From positions 1 to 64,000 of the forward strand of contig OY970370.1 of assembly GCA_963718745.1 (NCBI GenBank): 64,000 nt of DNA. The letters run 5' to 3'. The position numbers and the translations under genes are program-made. This document shows, piece after piece, positions 7,281 through 25,995 of the stretch. The DNA is from Fermentibacter sp963718745 [NCBI: Candidatus Fermentibacterota bacterium] (lineage in GTDB: Bacteria; Fermentibacterota; Fermentibacteria; Fermentibacterales). The notes beneath the pieces are model-generated. The model was not told where the DNA came from, ran no database searches, and saw only the letters and a program-made list of their open reading frames with translations. How positions within the stretch are numbered: the stretch's first letter is position 1; each line of letters begins with the position of its first letter.

Positions 7281-7355
7281 TCCCCGGTAGCTCAATGGTA
7301 GAGCGGGTGGCTGTTAACCACTAGGTTCGAGGTTCGAGCCCTCGCCGGGGAGCCA
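7281..7355 (+). tRNA. tRNA-Asn (GTT)
   Basis: A full cloverleaf can be drawn. The acceptor is TCCCCGG (7281-7287) with CCGGGGA (7345-7351). The D stem is GCTC/GAGC. The anticodon stem is GGTGG/CCACT around loop CTGTTAA (7311-7317) with anticodon GTT at 7313-7315. The T arm is CGAGG-TTCGAGC-CCTCG. Discriminator G is followed by an encoded CCA (7353-7355). Its 3' end is repeated at two downstream sites (9508, 12748), making it a likely integration target. Confidence 0.95.
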
Positions 7356-7407
7356 CGCATTCCTCAACAAGTACGAACAGGCTGTCAGCTCGCTGATCAG
7401 ATTGCGA
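7346..7407 (+). repeat. tRNA 3'-end repeat, copy 1 (att-like)
   Basis: Begins inside the tRNA-Asn with CGGGGAGCCACG and runs about 50 bp past it. It matches 12748-12808 at 53 of 61 positions by eye. The first 12 bases also occur exactly at 9508-9519. I read it as the left boundary of a cassette array; no recombinase is visible nearby. The remainder up to 7551 has no other gene. Confidence 0.6.
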
Positions 7408-7551
7408 GCAGTCCTCTTCTCTTGGTGATCCATCGATCCCTGAACGCCCATCACTGGCATCGATAGCATACTCGTTGACGTAAACCCCTGCCGGCTCTAT
7501 TGATGTTTCGGAGGGGTTCGACGAAATGGACCTGCTCAGAGAGGGGCGGAC

Positions 7552-9075
7552 ATGAACAGGGCTCATGTGGTCATGCTTGTTGTGATCGCCTCAGTAGCGT
7601 TCGCCGACCAGAATCCGTCGCTTGCCACGGTACTGACATCTGATGGAAGAATCATGGAAGGGGCGTCGGGGAGTTTCGATCCCGACGGGTTCAGCATGAA
7701 CTACAGTCCCGATGGGGAGCCGTTGTTCGTAGAAGATGGATCCTTGCCGTGTGAACCCGTACCCTGGCCTGATGGACAAGACCTGGAAGGTGCTTGGTAT
7801 CCTCTGGGAAGTGGTGTGAACAACCAAGTCCGAGCCATCGCCGTGAGTGGCTCGGATGTGTACGTTGGGGGGACTTATACCGAGGCTGGAGGTAGCTCTG
7901 CCAACCACATTGCCCGGTGGGACGGCAGCTCCTGGCATGCTCTCGGAAGCGGTGTGAACAATTGGGTCCAAGCCTTCGCCGTGAGTGGCTCTGATGTGTA
8001 TGCGGGGGGATGGTTTACCGGTGTATACACCCAGCCAGCCAACCGCATTGCCCGATGGAGTGGCAGTTCCTGGTATCCTCTGGGAAACGGTGTGAACTAT
8101 GTAGTTCTGGCCATCGCCGTGAGTGGCTCGGATGTGTATGTGGGGGGAGGGTTTACCCAGGCCGGAGGTAGCCCTGCCAACTACATCGCCCGGTGGGACG
8201 GCAGTTCCTGGCATCCTCTGGGAAGCGGTGTGAACGCCCTAGTCCGTGACATCACCGTGAGTGGCTCGGATGTGTACGTCGGGGGGGATTTCACCCAGGC
8301 TGGAGGCATCCCTGCCAACTTCATCGCCCGATGGGACGGCAGTTCCTGGCATCCTCTGGGAAGCGGTGTAGAAGGAACAGATTACCCTTACGTCTATGCC
8401 ATCGCCTTGATCGGCTCGGATGTGTACGTAGGGGGGCTGTTTACCGAGGCCGGCGGATCCCCTGCCAACGGCATCGCCCGGTGGGACGGCAGCTCCTGGC
8501 ATGCTCTCGGAAGCGGTGTAGAAGACGGTGGTATCATTGCCATCGCCGTGAGTGGCTCGGATGTGTATGTGGGGGGAGTGTTTACCCAGGCTGGAGGTAG
8601 CTCTGCCAACAACATCGCCCGGTGGGACGGCAGCTCCTGGCATACTCTCGGAAGCGGTGTGAACAATGCAGTTCTGGCCATCGATGTGAGTGGCTCGGAC
8701 GTGTATGCTGGGGGATGGTTTACCCAGGCCGGAGGTAGCCCTGCCAACCGCATCGCCCGGTGGAATCCTAACACGGGGATCGAAACCACACCAGAAGTTA
8801 TAACTGGCATCCTTCATGCCTCTCCCAACCCCACGGCTTCCGGCATCGAGCTCTCCTTCCAGAGCATCGGGCTTTCCCCTCTGACACTCGAGATCTTTGA
8901 CGCCGCAGGGCGGCTTGTGAGGGCGCAGGATCTGGGAACCCTTCCTTCAGGCTCCCAGGCCCACTACTGGGACGGCCTCGACGGAAACGGGCATGCCCTG
9001 GCCCAGGGTGTGTACTTCCTGAGGCTTTCCAGCGATGAGCTCGAGGCTTCCACGCGTGTGGTGCTGCTGAGGTAG
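7552..9075 (+). CDS. Secreted seven-repeat beta-propeller surface protein
   Basis: 507 aa. A signal peptide (residues 1-18, ending near 'SVAFA') is followed by a short N-terminal region. Seven repeats of about 46 aa then run from residue about 82 to 405, each of the form 'W.PLGSGVN..V.AIAVSGSD' plus 'VYVGG.FTQAGG..AN.IARW'. Seven Trp/Gly-rich repeats suggest a seven-bladed propeller. A C-terminal domain with 'ASPNPTASG', 'DAAGRLVRAQ' and 'YWDGLDGNG' resembles FlgD/T9SS sorting domains. The protein is probably exported and surface-anchored; the ligand is unknown. The DNA period is about 138 bp. It is paralogous to 12984-14501, with a nearly identical C-terminus. A strong hairpin terminator follows. 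Confidence 0.82.
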   Translation: MNRAHVVMLVVIASVAFADQNPSLATVLTSDGRIMEGASGSFDPDGFSMNYSPDGEPLFVEDGSLPCEPVPWPDGQDLEGAWYPLGSGVNNQVRAIAVSGSDVYVGGTYTEAGGSSANHIARWDGSSWHALGSGVNNWVQAFAVSGSDVYAGGWFTGVYTQPANRIARWSGSSWYPLGNGVNYVVLAIAVSGSDVYVGGGFTQAGGSPANYIARWDGSSWHPLGSGVNALVRDITVSGSDVYVGGDFTQAGGIPANFIARWDGSSWHPLGSGVEGTDYPYVYAIALIGSDVYVGGLFTEAGGSPANGIARWDGSSWHALGSGVEDGGIIAIAVSGSDVYVGGVFTQAGGSSANNIARWDGSSWHTLGSGVNNAVLAIDVSGSDVYAGGWFTQAGGSPANRIARWNPNTGIETTPEVITGILHASPNPTASGIELSFQSIGLSPLTLEIFDAAGRLVRAQDLGTLPSGSQAHYWDGLDGNGHALAQGVYFLRLSSDELEASTRVVLLR

Positions 9076-9095
9076 GCTGGCAGCATCTACTGTGA

Positions 9096-9120
9096 CGGGC
9101 CGCTGTTCTTCAGCGGCCCG
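9096..9120 (+). terminator. Hairpin terminator after propeller gene 1
   Basis: A perfect 10-bp stem, CGGGCCGCTG with CAGCGGCCCG, encloses a TTCTT loop and is followed by TTCTC. It lies 20 bp after the stop codon, between convergent genes, so it may act in both directions. A near-identical copy follows the second propeller gene. Confidence 0.8.
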
Positions 9121-9190
9121 TTCTCATTGTGCGATCTGCTAACATATCGATAGGTAAACTCTTCTAAGCTCTTACACAACCGAGCATTCC

Positions 9191-9427
9191 CTATCGCGAT
9201 CTTCTGAGCATCCTCTCAGTCATCACCTGCCGGTTCCAATTGTCACCCCGGGCCTCGGCCTCACGCAGCACCTCCTTCGGCAGCTCGAGCAGGTCCATCC
9301 ACTGAGTCACCCTCGCCCTCGACACCCCCAGCCCCCTTGCCAACTCCGCCCGGCTGATGCCCTCCGCCAGCATCCTGTCATGCAGCTCCCTGGCATAGAT
9401 CAGGGGATTGCGGAAAGTCTTAACCAA
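9191..9427 (-). CDS. Small ParB/KorB-like helix-turn-helix protein, copy 1
   Basis: About 78 aa. The core 'RAELARGLGVSRARVTQW' is a clear helix-turn-helix with the look of ParB/KorB or the C-terminal HTH of serine recombinases. It is preceded by 'FRNPLIYARELHDRML'. The only start in the conserved frame is TTG (9427), so the start is uncertain. The conserved reading frame extends upstream without a stop as far as the att-like repeat at 9508. It is one of three paralogs (also at about 12446 and 14619), two of which sit convergent to a propeller gene. The role may be DNA binding at the cassette boundary (inference). Confidence 0.68.
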   Translation of the reverse strand: MVKTFRNPLIYARELHDRMLAEGISRAELARGLGVSRARVTQWMDLLELPKEVLREAEARGDNWNRQVMTERMLRRSR

Positions 9428-9507
9428 CTTGGGTTTGATAGCCCTAACAGATAGCCGAATGGGTATGCTCAGAACAGGTCCCCGAGGGGTTCGCCTTGAT
9501 AGCGATA

Positions 9508-9519
9508 CGGGGAGCCACG
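9508..9519 (+). repeat. tRNA 3'-end repeat, copy 2 (att-like)
   Basis: CGGGGAGCCACG, identical to the last bases of tRNA-Asn plus two flanking bases. It is preceded by TTCGCCTTGATAGCGATA, which recurs upstream of copy 3 with one change. It lies just upstream (minus strand) of HTH gene 1. Confidence 0.55.
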
Positions 9520-9567
9520 TCTTTCTCGCTGTTCAATAACAGGTTAACCAAACCGCTCCCTGCGGGA

Positions 9568-10581
9568 TCAGGGTTTGTTCAGAACGCTGACTATACGGGT
9601 TATCCGTTCATCGACGAAGGTTCTGATCACCTCCGGAACTAGACCTCTCGTGGCCGCTGTGGAGATGAAGTCGTTATGTCCGACGAACAAGCCAGCCTCC
9701 CGTGCGAACCTCTGGTAGTCCTCGAGCGGGAGTGCGCCGTAGGTCTCAGGGACCGATTTGTAGATGGCCACATACCTCCCGCCGTGAACAAGGACTCGAT
9801 TGATCTCGGTCAGAACCTCTTCGATGCCATTTATCTCCTGCAGGGCCATGAGGGAGGTTATCAGATCCACTGATGAATCAGGGAAGGGAAGCCTCCTGAC
9901 ATCTGCTCCCACGGCCTCGCATTTCCCTGACCTGCCGAGCCTCGCGAACTTGTTCTGAATCACCCAGAGGCATTTCAGATCCCTCTCCGTGGCGAAAACC
10001 CGCTCGAACGAATCGGACGCGTTCACGATGCAGGAAATACCGCTCCCTCCACCCGAAGCGATGTCCAGGACAGTTCGCGCCTTGTACGAGATCGCTGTTT
10101 CGACATAGTTCCGAACAGCTTCGCTGGTGTTCACAAGGGAATCCAGGAATCTGGACTCCCGGTCGCGGCAACGCATCCAGCCGTTCCCCATCCTGTATCG
10201 GGCTTGGCCGTCTAGGCATTGCGGTATCCCCGCAGAGCAAGACTCGGTGGTTCTCAAGGGTGCGTCATGCGATCCGTGAGATCTGACGATTCTTATGGCT
10301 TCATCCACTCCAATCCGCGCCAGTCGCTTCATGGAGAGCGCTCCCTCTGTTGGGAGACTGCCTCCGGGATCGAGCACTTCGTCGACGGGTGCCCTCCATT
10401 CGCGAATCCTGTTCTGCTCGACAAGCAGGGGTCTCCCATGGAACACGGGGAAACTGTACCTGCAACTTGTACAGCTGAGATCACCAGAATTGATGTGGGA
10501 GCCAGAGAAACTGCGGGGTTCGAGATGGAACTCAGCATGACAGGCCGGACAGCAGAGATATCCGAGCACATTCTTCTGCAT
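9568..10581 (-). CDS. SAM methyltransferase with N-terminal zinc-ribbon (Trm112-like)
   Basis: 337 aa. The N-terminus 'LCCPACHAEF' plus 'LSCTSCRYSFPV' forms a four-Cys zinc ribbon of the Trm112 kind. The C-terminal half is a class I methyltransferase with 'TVLDIASGGGSGI' (SAM-binding glycines), 'ADVRRLPFPDSS' and 'INRVLVHGGRYVAIY'. Such enzymes methylate small molecules or glycans; the substrate is unclear. It lies in the second cassette, between att-like copies 2 and 3, and opposes the GNAT gene. The first Met (10581) is followed directly by the zinc-ribbon sequence, which supports this start. Confidence 0.75.
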   Translation of the reverse strand: MQKNVLGYLCCPACHAEFHLEPRSFSGSHINSGDLSCTSCRYSFPVFHGRPLLVEQNRIREWRAPVDEVLDPGGSLPTEGALSMKRLARIGVDEAIRIVRSHGSHDAPLRTTESCSAGIPQCLDGQARYRMGNGWMRCRDRESRFLDSLVNTSEAVRNYVETAISYKARTVLDIASGGGSGISCIVNASDSFERVFATERDLKCLWVIQNKFARLGRSGKCEAVGADVRRLPFPDSSVDLITSLMALQEINGIEEVLTEINRVLVHGGRYVAIYKSVPETYGALPLEDYQRFAREAGLFVGHNDFISTAATRGLVPEVIRTFVDERITRIVSVLNKP

Positions 10582-10923
10582 CGCTCCTCCATTTGTTCGG
10601 ATCGTATCAACTCAAGTACCTTTTGGCGGGAATATGCATGAAATGGAAAGGAACCTCCCGCGTGCTTCTGCTGTAGGAGTTATCAGATGGAGGCTGATCC
10701 GGGGCTACAGAGAACGCCAGGTCTCACTCCTCCCTTGCGATGGTCGAGATGGATCAGGTCCCGAAGCCTCTGTCGACACTTCTCATCATGGGAGTAGCCG
10801 AAGGTGGCTCCCTTGCTCCGCCTCATGGTCCACCTCGAGGATGGCAACAGCGCAATTCTGTAGCATACTTTCTTGAAGAGCCCTGAAATCTCAAAGACGT
10901 TATTCGAGATTCGGAGACCGAGC
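10582..10923. other. Divergent intergenic region, no convincing gene
   Basis: About 340 bp between divergent genes. A minus-strand ORF overlaps it and part of the GNAT gene, but it has no family motif or good start. Promoters for both neighbours are expected here. I see no terminator or RNA gene. Confidence 0.45.
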
Positions 10924-11430
10924 ATGAAGTCGTTTCGTCTCAGGCCGTTCGAAGAGGCTCTCGACAAGGAGACGGTCAAGGGCTTCCTCGCAGAGACCCT
11001 CCGGATCGGCTCCGATGAGCCTGTAAGCATCGAGGATAACGCCTCCAGTTACTTCGCGGCTGTCGAACGGGCTCAGTCGAGTGACAGGCGCTTCTGCTCG
11101 ATGCTGCTCGAAAGTGATGTAGCAGTGGGGTTCGTGGACGTGTTCACGATGCCGAAGAAGCCCGGTTCCGGCTTCATGCGTTTCTGTTATGTGGTCCCGG
11201 AGAAGAGGGGATGCGGGGTATCGGACAGGATAGTTGATTACTGCGTCGAACTCATGTCCGGGTACGGATGTAGTGAGATCCTTCTCGACGTGCGGGTCAA
11301 CAACCCGAGGGCCGTCGGTTTCTATGCCAGACATGGCTGGGTTGTCAGGGAGGAGAAGCAGGAAGGGTTCCTGCGGATGGGCAGGATCCTGAAGGCGAGG
11401 AATGAGACGAACGCTGGTTGCGAACCATGA
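10924..11430 (+). CDS. GNAT-family N-acetyltransferase
   Basis: 168 aa. The acetyl-CoA binding signature is present as 'VVPEKRGCGVSDRIVD' (the RGxGxS-type P-loop) at about residues 96-111. It is followed by 'ILLDVRVNNPRAVGFYARHG', the classic motif B end of GNAT proteins. The ATG at 10924 has GGAGACCGAGC just upstream. It probably acetylates an amine on a small molecule or protein. It is followed after 75 nt by the APH-like kinase and may be co-transcribed with it. This pair is typical of accessory or resistance-like cargo, but a drug substrate cannot be claimed. Confidence 0.82.
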   Translation: MKSFRLRPFEEALDKETVKGFLAETLRIGSDEPVSIEDNASSYFAAVERAQSSDRRFCSMLLESDVAVGFVDVFTMPKKPGSGFMRFCYVVPEKRGCGVSDRIVDYCVELMSGYGCSEILLDVRVNNPRAVGFYARHGWVVREEKQEGFLRMGRILKARNETNAGCEP

Positions 11431-11505
11431 AGCATGCCTGACCATGGAGAGCACTAATCGCTCGTCTTGCGGGGTCAGCTTCTCCACACCGGAGTAGGTA
11501 GGCTG

Positions 11506-12384
11506 ATGGAATCAGCCACGTTGATTAGTGTCCTTTCCAGTCACGATCTGGCGATCGATCCAGAGTCGGTTGTCAGGATCAGCGAAGGTTCGTGGCGCGC
11601 GCAGAGCTCGTCCGGTCCGATGGTTCTCCGCTTCATTCCTCAGGACGCCCATCATGCCCACAGGGCTATCAGGACTCTCGAGCAGGTTCCCCCAAGCCCG
11701 TTCCTCATGCTTCAGCCGCTGCGCGACTTCGTCCGCTGTGAGGGAGGAATGATAGCAGTTCTGGAGTGGATACCGGGCTCCACGCTTCGCGAAGCCAACC
11801 AGGATGAGATGCCTCTCTTCTTCGATCGACTGGCTCGCTGGCACAGGGGCAATGCGGGCAAGCTTCCGTTGTACTCGAGATACACGGACAGGGAGTATCG
11901 CTCGATAGCTGAGTTCGTGGACGGAGAGCTGGAATGCCATCTCGGCATCCTGGGTCTTCATGAGCAAGAGAAGTCCTGTCTCAGCATTCTGGAACCTCTT
12001 GCTTCGGGAATCGTGACCTACACCCATGGCGATGTGCATCCTGACAACATCATTCGCAGGCATGACGGCGGCTTCGCACTGCTGGATCCGGAGTACCTGC
12101 ATGTCGGATGCAACTACCTGGATCTCGACTACATCGACTGGTGGGGGATCGAGGCCGATCCGGCGCCATGGTGGGTCATCAGAGATCAAGCCCGGGAATC
12201 CGTCACAGCCTACTTCGCTGCGCTCGGCGTCGATGCTCGCGGAATCTCAGCTATCATGAAGGCCATCTGCTTGCTCAGCACCCTCCGCAGTCACACCAAT
12301 GCCGTTCAGTTCCGCACAGGCGATTCCGATCGAGCTCAGGCTCGTGTGCGTCTGATCCTGGATGGAGGGCTGCCGGAGGCATAG
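11506..12384 (+). CDS. Aminoglycoside phosphotransferase-like kinase (APH/choline kinase fold)
   Basis: 292 aa. The catalytic loop 'THGDVHPDNII' (His174, Asp176, Asn181) and the metal-binding 'LLDPEY' are diagnostic of the APH/choline/fructosamine kinase superfamily. An N-lobe Lys is not obvious, as 'PMVLRFIP' replaces the usual VLK. A late 'DLDYIDWW' also fits the family. It phosphorylates a hydroxyl on a small molecule; antibiotic, choline and sugar remain possible. The start at 11506 is the Met following GGAGTAGGTAGGCTG. It closes the cargo of cassette 2 before HTH gene 2. Confidence 0.75.
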   Translation: MESATLISVLSSHDLAIDPESVVRISEGSWRAQSSSGPMVLRFIPQDAHHAHRAIRTLEQVPPSPFLMLQPLRDFVRCEGGMIAVLEWIPGSTLREANQDEMPLFFDRLARWHRGNAGKLPLYSRYTDREYRSIAEFVDGELECHLGILGLHEQEKSCLSILEPLASGIVTYTHGDVHPDNIIRRHDGGFALLDPEYLHVGCNYLDLDYIDWWGIEADPAPWWVIRDQARESVTAYFAALGVDARGISAIMKAICLLSTLRSHTNAVQFRTGDSDRAQARVRLILDGGLPEA

Positions 12385-12445
12385 ATGGGCTCTTCTGATA
12401 GGTGGTTCGACTACCTACCCGAATCAGGAGCCCTCCTTCGCCCCC

Positions 12446-12697
12446 TCATCTCCCTCTCCGCACCACCTGCCTGTTCCAGCGATCACCAAGGGCCTCGGCA
12501 TTCCGCAACGCCTTCTCCGGGAGTTCGAGCAGATCCAGCCACTGGGTCACACGTGCCCTCGACACCCCCAGCCTCTTGGCCAGCTCGGCCCGGTTGATGC
12601 CCTCCGCCAGCATCCGGTCGCGCAGCTCCCTGGCATAGAGCACGGGATTGCGAAATTTCTTGGTAGGTATGGGATTGGGATATCTGATCGGGATCAG
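12446..12697 (-). CDS. Small ParB/KorB-like helix-turn-helix protein, copy 2
   Basis: The core 'RAELAKRLGVSRARVTQW' is nearly identical to copies 1 and 3 and is preceded by 'FRNPVLYARELRDRML'. The frame stays open to an ATG at 12910, but that extension runs through the att-like repeat. By alignment with copy 3 (ATG start) the equivalent codon here is CTG at 12697, so the start is unresolved. It is convergent with the APH-like gene and lies immediately inside boundary repeat 3. Confidence 0.6.
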   Translation of the reverse strand: MIPIRYPNPIPTKKFRNPVLYARELRDRMLAEGINRAELAKRLGVSRARVTQWLDLLELPEKALRNAEALGDRWNRQVVRRGR

Positions 12698-12747
12698 CAG
12701 GGGGATGGTCAGGACAGGTCCCCTTGGGGTTCGCCTGGATAGCGATA

Positions 12748-12808
12748 CGGGGAGCCAGCAATTCTTCAACAAGTACGAACTGACTATCAGCTCGCTGATC
12801 AGAGTGCG
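12748..12808 (+). repeat. tRNA 3'-end repeat, copy 3 (att-like)
   Basis: CGGGGAGCCA followed by about 50 bp matching the sequence after the tRNA-Asn (53/61 identical with 7346-7406). On the plus strand both copies encode a related peptide, 'FxNKYExxxSSLIRxRA', with mainly conservative changes. The 17 bases before it (ATAGCGATA and flank) match the region before copy 2. The rest to 12983 holds the promoter region of propeller gene 2. Confidence 0.6.
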
Positions 12809-12983
12809 TGCGCTCGTCTTCCGAAATATTTCCTGGGGAAGCAACTCACGATATCGAGCGGGGATCCCTGGAAGGAAGATTCCGAATGCATACAACGAAT
12901 CCGTTGACAAGCCTTCCGAGGGGCTGGATGTTTGTCTAGATTTATACGGATAGTGTATTTAGCTCACATGGAGGGAGGGCAAG

Positions 12984-14501
12984 ATGATGTGGTTTGCATT
13001 TGTACCTCTTGTTCTTTCTTCAGCAATGCTAGCTGAAACCAATCCATCACTTGCCGCCATACTTGCTCACGACGTAAGTACCATTGAGGGATCTTTGGGG
13101 GACTTCGATCCAGCCGGCTTCCGCATGGTGTGCGGTCCTGACGGGGAGCTGGTATTCATGGAAGATGGATTATCACCATGGGAACCCGTACTCCCGCCTG
13201 ATGGATGGGATATTGAAGGTGCCTGGTTTCCGCTCGGAAGTGGGATCAGTGGCCCCATCATCCCGTATGTAAGCAGTATTGCTGTCAGTGGCTCGGATGT
13301 GTATGTGGGCGGGAATTTCACCCAGGCTGGGACTGTACCCGCCAACCGGATGGCTCGCTGGGATGGCAGTTCATGGCATTCGCTAGGAAGCGGCATAAGC
13401 AGCTATGTCTATGCTGTATCGGTGACAGGCTCGGATGTGTATGTGGGTGGTAGTTTCACACAGGCCGGAGGCGGTACCGCAAACAACATCGCCCGTTGGG
13501 ATGGAAGCTCATGGAATCCACTAGGAAGCGGCATGGACCAGGGAGTACGTGCCCTGGCCGTTGACGGTTCTGATGTGTATGCGGGCGGATACTTTACCCA
13601 TGCAGGGGGCAGTACCGCAAACCATATCGCGCGCTGGGATGGCAGCTCATGGCATGCTCTTGGAGACGGCGTGAACAATTATGTCGATATCATCACAGTA
13701 AGCGGTTCTGATGTGTATGTGGGCGGATACTTTACCCAGGCAGGGGGCATTCCCGCAAACAACATCGCCCGCTGGGACGGAAGCTCATGGCATGCTCTTG
13801 GAAATGGCGTGAGCGGAAACGTATTTGACATCGCCATCAGCGGTTCCGAACTGTATGCCTGCGGATATTTCACCCAGGCCGGAGGCGGTCCCGCAAACAA
13901 TATCGCCCGCTGGGACGGAAGCTCATGGCATCCGCTCGGAAGTGGTGCGGAAGGTAACGTATATGCCGTTGAAGTTCTCGGTTCTGATGTGTATGCGGGT
14001 GGATTCTTCACCCAGGCCGGGGGTAGTTACGCGAGCAACATCGCTAGTTGGGACGGCAGTACCTGGCATACGCTCGGACTTGGAGTGAGCAATACGGTCT
14101 ATGACATAGCCGCAAGCGGCTCGAATCTGATTGTGGGCGGGGAATTCCAGAATGCCGGACCAATTTCTGCACTGTGCGTAGCCCTCTGGGTACCGAACAC
14201 AGGGATCGAAACCACCCCGGAAGTGATAACCGGCATCCTTCATGCCTCTCCCAACCCCACGGCTTCCGGCATCGAGCTCTCCTTTCAAAGCACCGGGCTC
14301 TCCCCGCTGACACTCGAGACCTACGATGCCGCAGGGCGCCTTGTGAGGGCGCAGGATCTGGGAACCCTTCCTGCAGGCACCCAGGCTTACTACTGGGACG
14401 GCCTCGACGGGAACGGGCATGCCCTGGCCCAGGGAGTGTACTTCCTGAGGCTCGCAAGCGATGAACTCGAGGCTTCCACGCGGGTGGTGCTGCTGAGGTA
14501 G
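12984..14501 (+). CDS. Secreted seven-repeat beta-propeller surface protein, paralog 2
   Basis: 505 aa. It has a signal peptide (residues 1-18, 'LSSAMLAE'), the same N-terminal region as paralog 1 ('NPSLAAILAHD', 'FDPAGF'), and seven repeats of about 46 aa of the 'LGSGxxxxVYAVxVxGSD' plus 'VYVGGxFTQAGG' type. The last repeat is degenerate. The C-terminal sorting-like domain is almost identical in DNA to paralog 1 (about 14202-14501 against 8776-9075), while the repeats have diverged more. GGAGGGAGGGC precedes the ATG by 5 nt. It is probably exported and surface-bound through the C-terminal domain; the binding partner is unknown. Confidence 0.82.
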   Translation: MMWFAFVPLVLSSAMLAETNPSLAAILAHDVSTIEGSLGDFDPAGFRMVCGPDGELVFMEDGLSPWEPVLPPDGWDIEGAWFPLGSGISGPIIPYVSSIAVSGSDVYVGGNFTQAGTVPANRMARWDGSSWHSLGSGISSYVYAVSVTGSDVYVGGSFTQAGGGTANNIARWDGSSWNPLGSGMDQGVRALAVDGSDVYAGGYFTHAGGSTANHIARWDGSSWHALGDGVNNYVDIITVSGSDVYVGGYFTQAGGIPANNIARWDGSSWHALGNGVSGNVFDIAISGSELYACGYFTQAGGGPANNIARWDGSSWHPLGSGAEGNVYAVEVLGSDVYAGGFFTQAGGSYASNIASWDGSTWHTLGLGVSNTVYDIAASGSNLIVGGEFQNAGPISALCVALWVPNTGIETTPEVITGILHASPNPTASGIELSFQSTGLSPLTLETYDAAGRLVRAQDLGTLPAGTQAYYWDGLDGNGHALAQGVYFLRLASDELEASTRVVLLR

Positions 14502-14521
14502 ACGGGCAGCATCGACTGTGG

Positions 14522-14546
14522 CGGGTCGCTGTTCTTCAGCGGCCCG
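14522..14546 (+). terminator. Hairpin terminator after propeller gene 2
   Basis: CGGGTCGCTG pairs with CAGCGGCCCG (one G-T wobble) around a TTCTT loop, followed by TTCTC. It is a copy of the hairpin at 9096-9120 and sits between convergent genes. Confidence 0.78.
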
Positions 14547-14618
14547 TTCTCATCGTGCGATCTGCTGAACATATCGATCGGTAGACTCTCCTCAACCCTG
14601 ACACAACCGGACATTTCA

Positions 14619-14885
14619 CTACTGCGATCTTCTGAGCATCCTCTCAGTCATCAGCCGGCGCGCCCAGTTATCGCCCTTCTTCACGGCTTCCCTGATCGTC
14701 CCCTCAGGCAGCTCGAGCAGGTCCAGCCATTGGGTGACCCTTGCCCTGGACACCCCCAGCCTCCGGGCAAGCTCGGCGCGGTTGATGCCCTCGGTCAGCA
14801 TCCGGTCCCGCATCTCCATCGCGTAGACCACAGGGTTGCGGTATGTCCGCCTGGGCTTTGGCTCTGGGTGCCTGATGGGGAGCAT
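14619..14885 (-). CDS. Small ParB/KorB-like helix-turn-helix protein, copy 3
   Basis: 88 aa, the best-defined copy, with an ATG start: 'MLPIRHPEPKPRRTYRNP' leads into 'RAELARRLGVSRARVTQW' (HTH, about residues 36-53) and a basic C-terminus 'MTERMLRRSQ' shared with copy 1. It resembles the HTH tail of serine recombinases or ParB-like proteins but has no catalytic domain. It is convergent with propeller gene 2. The upstream sequence resembles that of copies 1 and 2 but has lost the tRNA-like end. Function is inferred only as DNA binding. Confidence 0.72.
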   Translation of the reverse strand: MLPIRHPEPKPRRTYRNPVVYAMEMRDRMLTEGINRAELARRLGVSRARVTQWLDLLELPEGTIREAVKKGDNWARRLMTERMLRRSQ

Positions 14886-14939
14886 GATCGAGATGGTCAG
14901 GAGGGGGTCCGAACAGCGGTTCGGTTGGCTCCGAGAAGA

Positions 14940-15431
14940 TCAGCGGGCTGAATCCAGGAGCACTGCGCCGATGGGGAAGACTATCTCCCGTATCCCCGGC
15001 ATTGCGACGCCATCCCAGTTCCTGATCTCCACTGTCACCTTGACGGTATCTCCGGAAAAGCTGAATCCGTAGTCCAGGACTTCATCCTCGACGGCAGCAG
15101 ATATGTCGAGGATTAGGAGCGAGCCGCCCTCGGGGAAGAGGGAGTCCAGCGGCGGGCCGGAGTACTCCTGAGGATAGCCTACATAACTGAACACTGAGTC
15201 GAGCATCGCCGGGGTTTCGACGAAGTAGAAGTTGTCCGGGGACGATTCGAATGGAGACAGGAGAGTGTTGGTGTCCGTCATGAATCCGTTGTCGACGAGA
15301 TGATGGACATCGCAGGACAGGACCGTGGTGTACTCGACGATGCGGTCTTCGTAGCCATCATGAGCATTGCATCCGTAGAGCGCTGCGGCGATACACACCG
15401 CGACAAGTCCATGAATCCGGTTGGCAACCAT
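14940..15431 (-). CDS. Lipoprotein of unknown function
   Basis: 163 aa starting MVANRIHGL. The N-terminal hydrophobic segment ends in the lipobox 'AALYGC', so Cys22 is the likely lipidated residue. The mature part is acidic with no known domain visible; 'ILDISAAVEDEVLDYGFSF' suggests a beta-rich fold. The start at 15431 is supported by GGAGGTGG 6 nt upstream and by the lipoprotein signal; the longer frame to 15551 is not. It is divergent from the next surface protein. Confidence 0.72.
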   Translation of the reverse strand: MVANRIHGLVAVCIAAALYGCNAHDGYEDRIVEYTTVLSCDVHHLVDNGFMTDTNTLLSPFESSPDNFYFVETPAMLDSVFSYVGYPQEYSGPPLDSLFPEGGSLLILDISAAVEDEVLDYGFSFSGDTVKVTVEIRNWDGVAMPGIREIVFPIGAVLLDSAR

Positions 15432-24942: not shown

Positions 24943-25029
24943 CCCGTAAGACAATGTTAGGCAAGCTATTGCCTCCTTCAACGGGATCCCTGTTTGCATT
25001 CCGTCCCAAAAAGAATAAAATTCATTTGC

Positions 25030-25995
25030 ATGAACGCCGGATCGCGACTGGACCATCCTGGCTCGTTGCACCATGTGATGGGACATGGGATGGGAGATGA
25101 GTGCATTCTGGAGACCGACGCGGACAAGAGGAGTTTCCTTGCACGTCTGGATTTCCTCGCCTCCGGGATGGATTTTCGTGTCTATGCCTGGGCATTGATG
25201 CCCAATCATTTCCATCTGCTTATCGAGATCGGGTACAACAGGCTGCACGAGATCATGCAGCGTCTCCTCGGCGGTTTCAGCATCTCCTACAACCGACGGC
25301 ACGGACATCGGGGTCATGTCTTCATGTCCCGGTTCAAGTCGATCCTTGTATGCAGGGATGAGTATCTGTATAAACTCATCAGATACATACATCTCAATCC
25401 GGTGAGAGCTGGAATGGTGGACAGCCTCTCCGAGCTCGCCGACTATCCATGGACTGGTCACAAGGCGATAATCAACGGTGAAGAACATGTCTGGCACCGT
25501 GTGAAGGATGTCCTGAGCGCCTTCGGAACTGACGAAGCAGATTCGAGGAGCGCCTATCTCTCGTATCTGGCAGCCGGCATTGGAGACGGAGACTCAGAAC
25601 TAATGGAGTCGGGGAGTCTCAGGATCTGCAGGGGCGGATTAGTTCGTGAGAAGGGTGCATGCTCTGATCAACGCCGCTATGACTACGTAGGGATGGTTCT
25701 GGGAAGCAGGGATTTTGCTGTCGGAGCGGCGCTGATGCTCGATGACAGGAGAAGACAGATCCGGAAAAGAGGCCAGGAACACGAAATGCTGGAAGCCATC
25801 ATCGAAAGAATCTGCGCACAATACAATATCGAACCGGTTCAATTGACGGGAAGAGCCAAGGGAGGCAGCGTGAGTTTCGCGAGGCGTGACGCCGTCCGAC
25901 TCCTTTTCAACGCGGGTGTCTGCAGGGCGGACATCTCGCGGAGGCTAAATCTCGCCCCCTCCTCCGTCACTCGGCTTCTCGCAGGCGATACCTGA
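25030..25995 (+). CDS. HUH (Y1) REP-associated tyrosine transposase with DnaA-C-like tail
   Basis: 321 aa. The N-terminal Y1 domain has 'DHPGSLHHVMGHGM', the HUH pair in 'MPNHFHLLIE' and a downstream helix 'YKLIRYIHLNPVRAGMV'. This is the typical TnpA-REP signature; the catalytic Tyr is probably in the 'DEYLYKLIRYIH' helix. The C-terminal part (about residues 245-320) resembles a DnaA C-terminal helical DNA-binding module ('ICAQYNIEPVQL', 'ARRDAVRLLF', 'ISRRLNLAPSSVTRLL'). The ATG at 25030 fits the family start. It nicks and transposes single-stranded DNA or REP sites. It appears intact. Confidence 0.87.
   Translation: MNAGSRLDHPGSLHHVMGHGMGDECILETDADKRSFLARLDFLASGMDFRVYAWALMPNHFHLLIEIGYNRLHEIMQRLLGGFSISYNRRHGHRGHVFMSRFKSILVCRDEYLYKLIRYIHLNPVRAGMVDSLSELADYPWTGHKAIINGEEHVWHRVKDVLSAFGTDEADSRSAYLSYLAAGIGDGDSELMESGSLRICRGGLVREKGACSDQRRYDYVGMVLGSRDFAVGAALMLDDRRRQIRKRGQEHEMLEAIIERICAQYNIEPVQLTGRAKGGSVSFARRDAVRLLFNAGVCRADISRRLNLAPSSVTRLLAGDT

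What the first reader, a model, noticed from the sequence alone, without database searches (positions are those of the whole stretch)
7281..14960. Tandem cassette array bounded by copies of the tRNA-Asn 3' end
The last bases of tRNA-Asn (CGGGGAGCCA) recur at 9508 and 12748, and about 50 bp beyond copies 1 and 3 also match (53/61). The intervals hold three modules, about 2.2, 3.2 and 2.2 kb. Each ends in a small HTH gene on the minus strand. The cargo is propeller surface protein / methyltransferase-GNAT-APH / propeller surface protein. This looks like repeated integration at a tRNA with no recombinase inside, hence trans-mobilised cassettes. What is seen: the repeats and gene order. What is inferred: integration.
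Basis: partly seen in the sequence, partly recalled or inferred. Interest (0 to 1): 0.78.

Follow-up and report, generated by a model that had tools for sequence, protein, structure and literature searches.

The report
tRNA cassette array of serine integrase
A row of small gene cassettes sits at the end of a tRNA gene, and each cassette ends in what looks like the cut-off tail of the kind of enzyme (a serine integrase) that inserts such DNA, which suggests that insertion splits the enzyme's own gene.

Summary
CGGGGAGCCA, the tRNA-Asn 3' end, occurs exactly three times in the window (0.46 expected). It bounds two complete cassettes; a third has a decayed right end. Each ends in a homologous minus-strand "HTH" block.

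I confirmed such tails in 31 of 42 Fermentibacterota genomes, often in same-strand tandem arrays. Their last nucleotides follow the host tRNA: tRNA-Asn ends CGGGGAGCCA or CGAGGCGCCA by lineage, tRNA-Arg(ACG) ends GTACCA or GTGCCA.

In relatives, large serine recombinases (LSRs) sit at these tRNA ends, their ORFs running antisense into the tRNA. The LSR 3' end beside the core is the inverted copy of a tail arm in 11 of 11 LSR junctions. One locus holds an intact 668-aa LSR-core-HTH ORF. HTH and core share frame in 80 of 87 pairings; HTH dN/dS is ~0.18.

Best reading: attP lies inside the LSR gene; integration leaves the catalytic body at the tRNA and the ParB-type HTH C-terminus at the far end. 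The window's cassettes are LSR-less derivatives, moved in trans or fossil.

Against: most cassette starts, the window's included, show no recognisable second arm, and the window's own LSR was not found. No recombination was observed. Closest known: Dehalococcoides ssrA islands, archaeal suicidal integrases.

The parts
7281..7355 (+). tRNA-Asn(GTT), anchor (attB/attL left half)
   Evidence: ARAGORN; 3' end CGGGGAGCCA
7346..7355 (+). core copy 1 (tRNA 3' end)
7356..9517 (.). cassette 1 (2162 bp)
7356..7419 (-). start of cassette 1; 84% like 12758-12821 and like a cassette start in G005 (L048); possibly the 3' end of a lost LSR gene, but its arm score (13 of 20) is within the control range
   Evidence: (D6)
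7552..9075 (+). cargo: DUF5122 beta-propeller protein with FlgD_ig / sorting-domain C-terminus
9194..9517 (-). tail 1: ParB-type HTH fragment in frame from the core (W...RNP...TERMLRR)
9488..9517 (+). 30-nt att half-site GGTTCG-N21-CCA incl. core copy 2 (9508-9517)
9518..12757 (.). cassette 2 (3240 bp)
9568..10581 (-). cargo: methyltransferase with Trm112-like N-terminus
10924..11430 (+). cargo: GNAT acetyltransferase
11467..12384 (+). cargo: APH-family phosphotransferase
12449..12757 (-). tail 2: ParB-type HTH fragment in frame from the core
12728..12757 (+). 30-nt att half-site incl. core copy 3 (12748-12757)
12758..12821 (-). start of module 3, related to 7356-7419 (arm score 12 of 20, not significant)
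12984..14501 (+). cargo: second propeller protein
14622..14915 (-). tail 3: HTH fragment; its right core is decayed, end of module 3 about 14915-14960

Best explanation
The locus is a tandem array of small, integrase-less integrative cassettes at the 3' end of tRNA-Asn. They derive from elements that use a large serine recombinase (LSR). In these elements attP lies inside the LSR gene: the ORF reads catalytic body, then the tRNA-like core (TGG...), then a ParB-type HTH C-terminus. Recombination with the tRNA 3' end splits the gene. The body stays beside the tRNA and gets a short antisense-tRNA tail; the HTH piece goes to the other end of the element and forms the conserved 'tail' of each cassette. 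Cassettes that lost the body keep the tail arm and core, and a minority also a recognisable second arm; they would be moved by an LSR acting in trans, or are fossils, and they stack at the tRNA by repeated insertion. SHOWN (sequence): the core equals the tRNA end and covaries with it; LSRs stand at those tRNAs in relatives; LSR 3' ends and tails carry inverted arms; one intact LSR-HTH ORF; frame coherence; purifying selection on the HTH. INFERRED: that recombination happens at these cores, that the HTH piece works as part of the LSR (possibly setting direction of recombination), and that any of the window's cassettes still move.
For: Tails follow the tRNA by lineage: 6 GGGGAGCCA tails, all in window, G001, G004, G005 (tRNA-Asn recovered in window and G004: GGGGAGCCA); 34 GAGGCGCCA tails, only in genomes whose tRNA-Asn, where recovered (12 genomes), ends GAGGCGCCA; 8 Arg-type GTGCCA tails in G028, G029, G030, G031, G034, and tRNA-Arg(ACG) ends GTGCCA in the four of these where it was recovered. 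14 of 14 loci with both an HTH block and tRNA-Asn or tRNA-Arg(ACG) have the block on the tRNA's 3' side and opposite strand. Of 28 serine-recombinase ORFs looked at, 16 lie at a tRNA (9 at tRNA-Asn/Arg(ACG)); 16 of 16 run antisense into it. All 16 genomes with a PF00239 match are among the 31 with tails (chance 0.002 if genomes were independent, which they are not). LSR 3' arms match inverted tail arms at 16-18 of 20 nt in 11 of 11 LSR junctions (10, L127); 0 of 16,400 control positions exceed 15. 668-aa ORF in G007 with PF00239, PF07508 and HTH_ParB. Core in HTH frame in 80 of 87 pairings, open in 74 of those 80; no ATG/GTG/TTG before the HTH core in 21 of 70; median dN/dS 0.18, 216 of 224 pairs below 0.5. 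Array size varies; similar cassette in different positions; three contigs stop exactly at the tRNA CCA.
Against: Only 11 of 98 array junctions (LSR-bearing ones included) show a second arm scoring 14 or more of 20; the window's three score 13, 10 and 12, within the control range. So most cassettes lack half of the expected site. No LSR or tyrosine recombinase in the window; no PF00239 match in 15 of the 31 tail genomes, among them G001 and G005, the nearest tail types; G004's two LSRs sit at other tRNAs. The window's cognate LSR is unknown. Only one intact LSR-HTH ORF was seen; the second junction (L127, G033) is frame-shifted. Of 38 complete cassettes only one holds an LSR remnant. HTH is under purifying selection although most copies are separated from any LSR. 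17 of 28 Arg-type GTACCA tails read GGTGTACCA where tRNA-Arg has GGCGTACCA, and no tRNA with that T was found. One G031 tail keeps GTACCA against its own tRNA. In the own-tRNA test 21 of 74 tails fail: 17 because the relevant tRNA was not recovered, 2 false tails, 2 real mismatches (G007, G037). Tails were catalogued with a pattern, so their form is partly built in: 86 tails from 124 HTH hits.
Confidence: 0.76

Rival explanations
1. The HTH block is an independent small regulator (antitoxin-like, excisionase-like) that each cassette carries; serine recombinases move the cassettes, but the HTH is not functionally part of them (the one fused ORF is an accident of neighbouring elements).
For: Purifying selection on the HTH in cassettes without LSR; 14 of 70 have an ATG within the first 30 codons; most junctions have no LSR to fuse with; only one intact fused ORF.
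Against: Intact LSR-core-HTH ORF in G007; frame kept through the core in 80 of 87 pairings although the distance between core and HTH varies; no possible start codon in 21 of 70; LSR 3' arm and tail arm are inverted copies.
Confidence: 0.16
2. Tandem duplication of a propeller gene plus regulator by homologous recombination, followed by an insertion; the match to the tRNA end is incidental.
For: Modules 1 and 3 carry related cargo and related starts.
Against: Core follows the tRNA across lineages and at two tRNAs; cargo differs between similar tails in other genomes.
Confidence: 0.04
3. Integron-type cassettes moved by the IntI tyrosine integrase that many of these genomes carry.
For: Integron integrases occur in this phylum (2 of 2 tested over the TIGR02249 cut-off); the array architecture looks integron-like.
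Against: No HTH tail at 20 fetched recombinase loci (19 IntI-like and L154) and only isolated core-like matches in L151 and L154; repeats of another kind stand upstream of intI in some; tails fold no better than shuffles; LSRs, not IntI, sit at the anchor tRNAs.
Confidence: 0.04

Closest known systems
Dehalococcoides ssrA genomic islands with DsiB (McMurdie et al. 2011, PMC3146451; passages read)
   Same: Tandem islands downstream of one RNA gene, bounded by direct repeats of its 3' end; large serine recombinase at attL whose ORF overlaps the att site and runs into the RNA gene or a neighbouring island; 15 of 31 islands without integration module. The authors suggested dsiB may be fully functional only on the circle or next to an island with 'the requisite 3' gene fragment'.
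   Different: Here the targets are tRNA-Asn and tRNA-Arg(ACG), cassettes are mostly 1-4.5 kb, and the 3' gene fragment is identified as a conserved ParB-type HTH at the right end of the cassettes, under purifying selection. No such domain is described in the passages read.
Archaeal suicidal (SSV-type) integrases (review PMC8371274; passages read)
   Same: Recombination site inside the integrase gene; integration splits the gene into two flanking pieces.
   Different: Those are tyrosine recombinases, said there to be 'exclusively' archaeal, and the split pieces are described as inactive. Here it is a serine recombinase in bacteria, and the split leaves the catalytic domains whole and removes only a C-terminal HTH.
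Accretion of ICE/CIME elements (seen in search listing and in a passage)
   Same: Tandem elements at one site, some without integrase, separated by att repeats.
   Different: Here much smaller cassettes, phylum-wide, with an integrase fragment as the att-bearing end (comparison from general knowledge).
Integrons
   Same: Ordered arrays of small cassettes with a conserved recombination tail and diverse cargo.
   Different: Different recombinase class, no attC-like tail found, platform is a tRNA rather than attI/intI.

Membership tests
Serine-recombinase islands at an RNA gene (Dehalococcoides ssrA-GI kind) | Elements bounded by direct repeats of the RNA gene's 3' end | tested here: met
Serine-recombinase islands at an RNA gene (Dehalococcoides ssrA-GI kind) | Large serine recombinase next to attL, ORF overlapping att | tested here: inconclusive
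   Met in relatives (16 of 16 tRNA-adjacent LSR ORFs); absent from the window itself
Serine-recombinase islands at an RNA gene (Dehalococcoides ssrA-GI kind) | Integration at ssrA | tested here: not met
   Anchors are tRNA-Asn and tRNA-Arg(ACG)
Serine-recombinase islands at an RNA gene (Dehalococcoides ssrA-GI kind) | Six-gene integration module (DsiA, RecF-like, ParBc, Mom ...) | not tested
   Homologues of these genes were not searched
Suicidal (split) integrase | attP within the integrase gene, gene split on integration | tested here: inconclusive
   Sequence evidence for it in relatives; no circle or recombination observed
Suicidal (split) integrase | Tyrosine recombinase of the archaeal superfamily | tested here: not met
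   PF00239 + PF07508 (+ PF13408 in 3 of the 4 scanned)
Suicidal (split) integrase | Split inactivates the enzyme | not testable with these tools
   Resolvase and Recombinase domains are present in the tRNA-side form of the 3 scanned; activity needs a bench test
Integron | intI beside the array | tested here: not met
   IntI-like genes lie elsewhere; a profile of 8 tyrosine recombinases hits 2 of the 62 array loci, at edges, and nothing in the window
Integron | attC folded site with RYYYAAC/GTTRRRY cores | tested here: inconclusive
   No such cores seen by eye in the tail 30-mers; folding z-scores -0.38 and 0.07 for two tails. My attC scan was run only at intI loci and found none even there, so it is weak
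ParB/Noc HTH domain | Sequence match to the domain | tested here: met
   PF17762 over cut-off; best PDB chains Spo0J E=3e-5 and Noc E=1.8e-4

The most novel reading that the evidence does not exclude
A bacterial serine integrase that edits itself by integrating. On the circle it carries a ParB-type HTH C-terminus; once inserted it loses it and ends in an antisense-tRNA tail; placed beside another element it gains that neighbour's HTH. The recombination site thus works as a built-in direction switch and as a domain-swapping port, and LSR-less cassettes act as stored HTH donors in integron-like arrays across a whole phylum.
Probability: 0.42. Interest if true: 0.85.

Novelty: new variant of a known kind. 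Interest (0 to 1): 0.72.

Why it matters
It would show that splitting an integrase gene by its own integration, described in a 2021 review as exclusive to archaeal tyrosine recombinases, also arose in bacteria with serine recombinases. It makes the 2011 suggestion about DsiB's missing 3' fragment directly testable, and it describes a second, serine-based way to build integron-like cassette arrays, carrying surface proteins and toxin-antitoxin/defence-type genes. A serine integrase whose direction is set by a removable domain would also be a useful tool.

Tried and rejected
Chance repeat: rejected. Tail as an unusual RNA fold: no. Tyrosine recombinase as mover: I listed PF00589 proteins (list cut), found tyrosine recombinases with a profile of eight of them at 2 of 62 array loci, looked at 20 candidate loci (19 with ~400-466-aa IntI-like proteins, two of which were scanned and are integron integrases, and one 275-aa protein) and at a third tyrosine recombinase; none is tied to tails. 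Integron reading: rejected as above. The 'empty tRNA site with a mirrored arm' in my notes was a misreading: those tRNAs hold an LSR gene, and the arm is its 3' end. I first held that LSR-less cassettes keep both arms; one search shows a second arm in only 11 of 98 junctions, so I lowered the main confidence from 0.80 to 0.76 and the novel case from 0.45 to 0.42.

Led nowhere: two tRNA patterns with wrong spacing (0 hits; 2 hits); viral-contig scan with the HTH profile (none of 24 candidates); phage and plasmid tblastn with the LSR-HTH protein (in the 24 rows listed of 320 records only the LSR part is covered, identities 28% or less); attC scan at 12 intI loci (none). G002 was meant as an empty site: no HTH in 20 kb, but 4.8 kb of other DNA follows the tRNA, so it is not a clean empty site.

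Rows dropped or partial: 6 of 62 array loci (L098, L099, L111, L114, L119, L122) gave no recognised tail; 86 tails come from 124 HTH hits. Two of the 86 (ends CGTTACACCA, TCTCGAACCA) are probably false matches; they stay in the counts and were left out except in its list of 98 junctions. The 87 pairings count one tail twice. dN/dS used 66 intact HTH copies and the 224 pairs with pS 0.08-0.65. Intervals over 6 kb were left out of the 38 cassettes. Not all HTH places were fetched and that list was cut. Of 39 PF00239 places I looked at 27 ORFs plus L125.

Literature: 8 searches in a library that lacks most subscription papers; in their listings, and in the passages of the two papers opened, I saw no serine integrase split by integration apart from the DsiB remark. 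All other papers were seen as search listings only.
Full report
What is there. The window has tRNA-Asn at 7281-7355, and the last ten bases of that gene occur twice more, at 9508 and 12748, and nowhere else exactly (3 found; 100 shuffles: mean 0.46, maximum 2). Before each of these two copies lies a homologous ~330-bp block with a minus-strand helix-turn-helix frame. A third block at 14615-14847 has lost its core. After copies 1 and 3 there is a 74-nt stretch, 84% identical. The cargo is propeller / methyltransferase-GNAT-APH / propeller.

A phylum-wide family. No genome is held for the window. One scan of public genomes with the HTH profile gave one locus, a two-cassette contig of a Candidatus Fermentibacteria MAG (L001). 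In the 42 genomes searched as its phylum, 39 have an HTH match at E<=0.001; some weak matches lie in ORFs of about 400 aa, probably ParB itself. I fetched part of these places. In 62 array loci there are 124 HTH hits, from which a pattern search gave 86 tails (2 probably false) in 31 of the 42 genomes and the window, and 38 complete cassettes of 0.95-4.55 kb. Many stand in same-strand rows 1-3 kb apart, for example eight HTH hits on one 16-kb contig of G013.

The tail ends in the tRNA. The catalogued tails end in a 30-nt stretch [AG]GTNYG-N21-CCA; this form is partly built in by the pattern, but the raw listing shows it too. The last nucleotides are like the 3' end of one of two tRNAs. Six tails, in the window, G001, G004 and G005, end GGGGAGCCA; the tRNA-Asn recovered in the window and G004 ends the same. 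34 tails end GAGGCGCCA, as does tRNA-Asn in all 12 of those genomes where I recovered it. A second set of 28 ends GTACCA, like tRNA-Arg(ACG). Of these, 11 read GGCGTACCA as the tRNA does, and 17 read GGTGTACCA, one base off; no tRNA with that T was found. In five genomes tRNA-Arg(ACG) ends GTGCCA (G028, G030, G031, G033, G034). Eight Arg-type tails ending GTGCCA were seen, in G028, G029, G030, G031 and G034 (tRNA-Arg of G029 not recovered); one other G031 tail keeps GTACCA. In 14 of 14 loci that hold both an HTH block and one of these tRNAs, the block lies on the 3' side on the opposite strand. Two contigs end and one begins exactly at the tRNA's CCA, as expected if cells in the sample differ at that point.

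The recombinase. Tyrosine recombinases, including integron integrases (two scanned, both over the TIGR02249 cut-off), are present in the phylum but not tied to the tails. A search for serine recombinases gave 39 places in 16 of 42 genomes, and all 16 are among the 31 genomes with tails (chance 0.002 if genomes were independent). I looked at 28 ORFs, one of them the remnant L125. Sixteen lie at a tRNA, nine of them at tRNA-Asn or tRNA-Arg(ACG), and 16 of 16 run toward and antisense into the tRNA. Two of the nine (L039, L125) are truncated. Fifteen tail genomes have no PF00239 match, which incompleteness or loss may explain.

Why the HTH looks like part of the recombinase. (1) In G007 a 668-aa ORF contains Resolvase, Recombinase and HTH_ParB domains, with the core encoding the junction; a second such junction, L127, is frame-shifted. 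(2) The 20 nt of LSR 3' end next to the core, reverse-complemented, match a tail arm at 16-18 of 20 positions in 11 of 11 LSR junctions, while 16,400 control positions reach at most 15. A dyad site of about 50 bp is what serine integrases use as attP (general knowledge). LSR families pair with different tail types. (3) The HTH frame is in phase with the core's TGG in 80 of 87 pairings although their distance varies, and open in 74 of those 80. (4) 21 of 70 tails have no ATG/GTG/TTG before the HTH core. (5) The HTH is under purifying selection (median dN/dS 0.18; 216 of 224 pairs below 0.5).

Model. On the circle the LSR gene reads through attP into the HTH. Insertion at the tRNA 3' end leaves the LSR body at the tRNA, ending in a short antisense-tRNA peptide, and puts the HTH piece at the far end. 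Repeated insertion stacks elements. Small cassettes have lost the body: of 38 complete cassettes only L125 holds an LSR remnant. They keep the tail arm and core, but a second arm (score 14 or more of 20) shows in only 11 of 98 junctions, LSR-bearing ones included. The window's three junctions score 13, 10 and 12, within the control range. The starts of modules 1 and 3 have an open frame in phase with the core (47 and 67 codons) and recur in G005; module 2 has a stop after 5 codons. That the first two are LSR remnants is a guess. So movement in trans is possible for some cassettes and doubtful for many.

Movement. Window and G004 share flanks and tRNA-Asn but differ in array: three tails against one, plus a propeller module without tail. 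A cassette that is first at tRNA-Arg in G012 matches one that is internal in G016 over 91% of its length, with pieces up to 95.7% identical. The ~29 kb between tRNA-Asn and the LSR-HTH locus in G007 has helicase, Eco57I-type methylase, and DISARM- and Dpd-type matches (14 proteins scanned). The ~26 kb at tRNA-Arg in G027 has cytosine methylases, EcoRII and Z1-type proteins (20 scanned). Their outer limits are inferred, the far core in G027 being degenerate. Among 54 proteins of small cassettes are propeller/sorting-domain proteins, three AbiEii, two Schlafen, a HepT and a PIN protein (25 of 53 and of 58 families were shown).

Known or new. McMurdie et al. 2011 (PMC3146451, passages) described tandem ssrA islands in Dehalococcoides with DsiB overlapping attL, and suggested that DsiB may be complete only on the circle or beside a neighbour with 'the requisite 3' gene fragment'. 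The 2021 review of archaeal tyrosine recombinases (PMC8371274, passages) says self-disrupting recombinases are found exclusively in archaea. The present system joins both ideas and identifies the fragment as a ParB-type HTH. In the listings of eight searches I saw no earlier description. I rate it a new variant of a known kind.

Limits. The window's cognate LSR was not found, only one intact LSR-HTH ORF was seen, and no circle or recombination was observed. Why the HTH stays conserved in cassettes without an LSR, and why most cassette starts lack the second arm, is not explained.

Noticed in passing
L135-L153 (e.g. L136:321-1565, L142:5576-6841): 19 loci in Fermentibacterota hold IntI-like proteins of 398-466 aa with about 100 extra N-terminal residues (two tested are over the TIGR02249 cut-off); in 12 of 19 the contig ends within about 700 bp upstream of the gene.
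   Followed up: partly
L155-L166, L172-L174: A third tyrosine recombinase clade, seen in the 15 genomes fetched for it; in the 14 aligned its usual HxLRH motif reads GWLRH and LLGH reads LLGI. Role unknown.
   Followed up: partly
L001:1710-2057 and L001:2791-3171: Both HTH tails of the G001 contig are interrupted by a related ~100-bp insert with a palindrome around TTTCGTCCGACGAAA.
   Followed up: no
L038:4555-4578: In G040 an array starts beside a sequence equal to the 3' end of tRNA-Arg, where ARAGORN calls no whole tRNA gene: a possible displaced att site.
   Followed up: no
L239, L240, L241, L242, L243, L245, L251: Serine recombinases at tRNA-Arg(cct), Glu, Ser, Arg(tct) and Met also run antisense into the tRNA; whether their elements carry a C-terminal fragment at the far end was not checked.
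   Followed up: no
L251:45-3299: Two serine recombinase genes stand in tandem at tRNA-Glu in G013.
   Followed up: no
window 24994-25995: ORF that by eye resembles a REP-associated transposase (recalled, no search); a similar-looking protein lies near an array in L096:911-1615.
   Followed up: no
L209, L214, L260: Contigs that end or begin exactly at the CCA of tRNA-Asn (G017, G034) or tRNA-Arg (G010), suggesting strain variation at that base.
   Followed up: no
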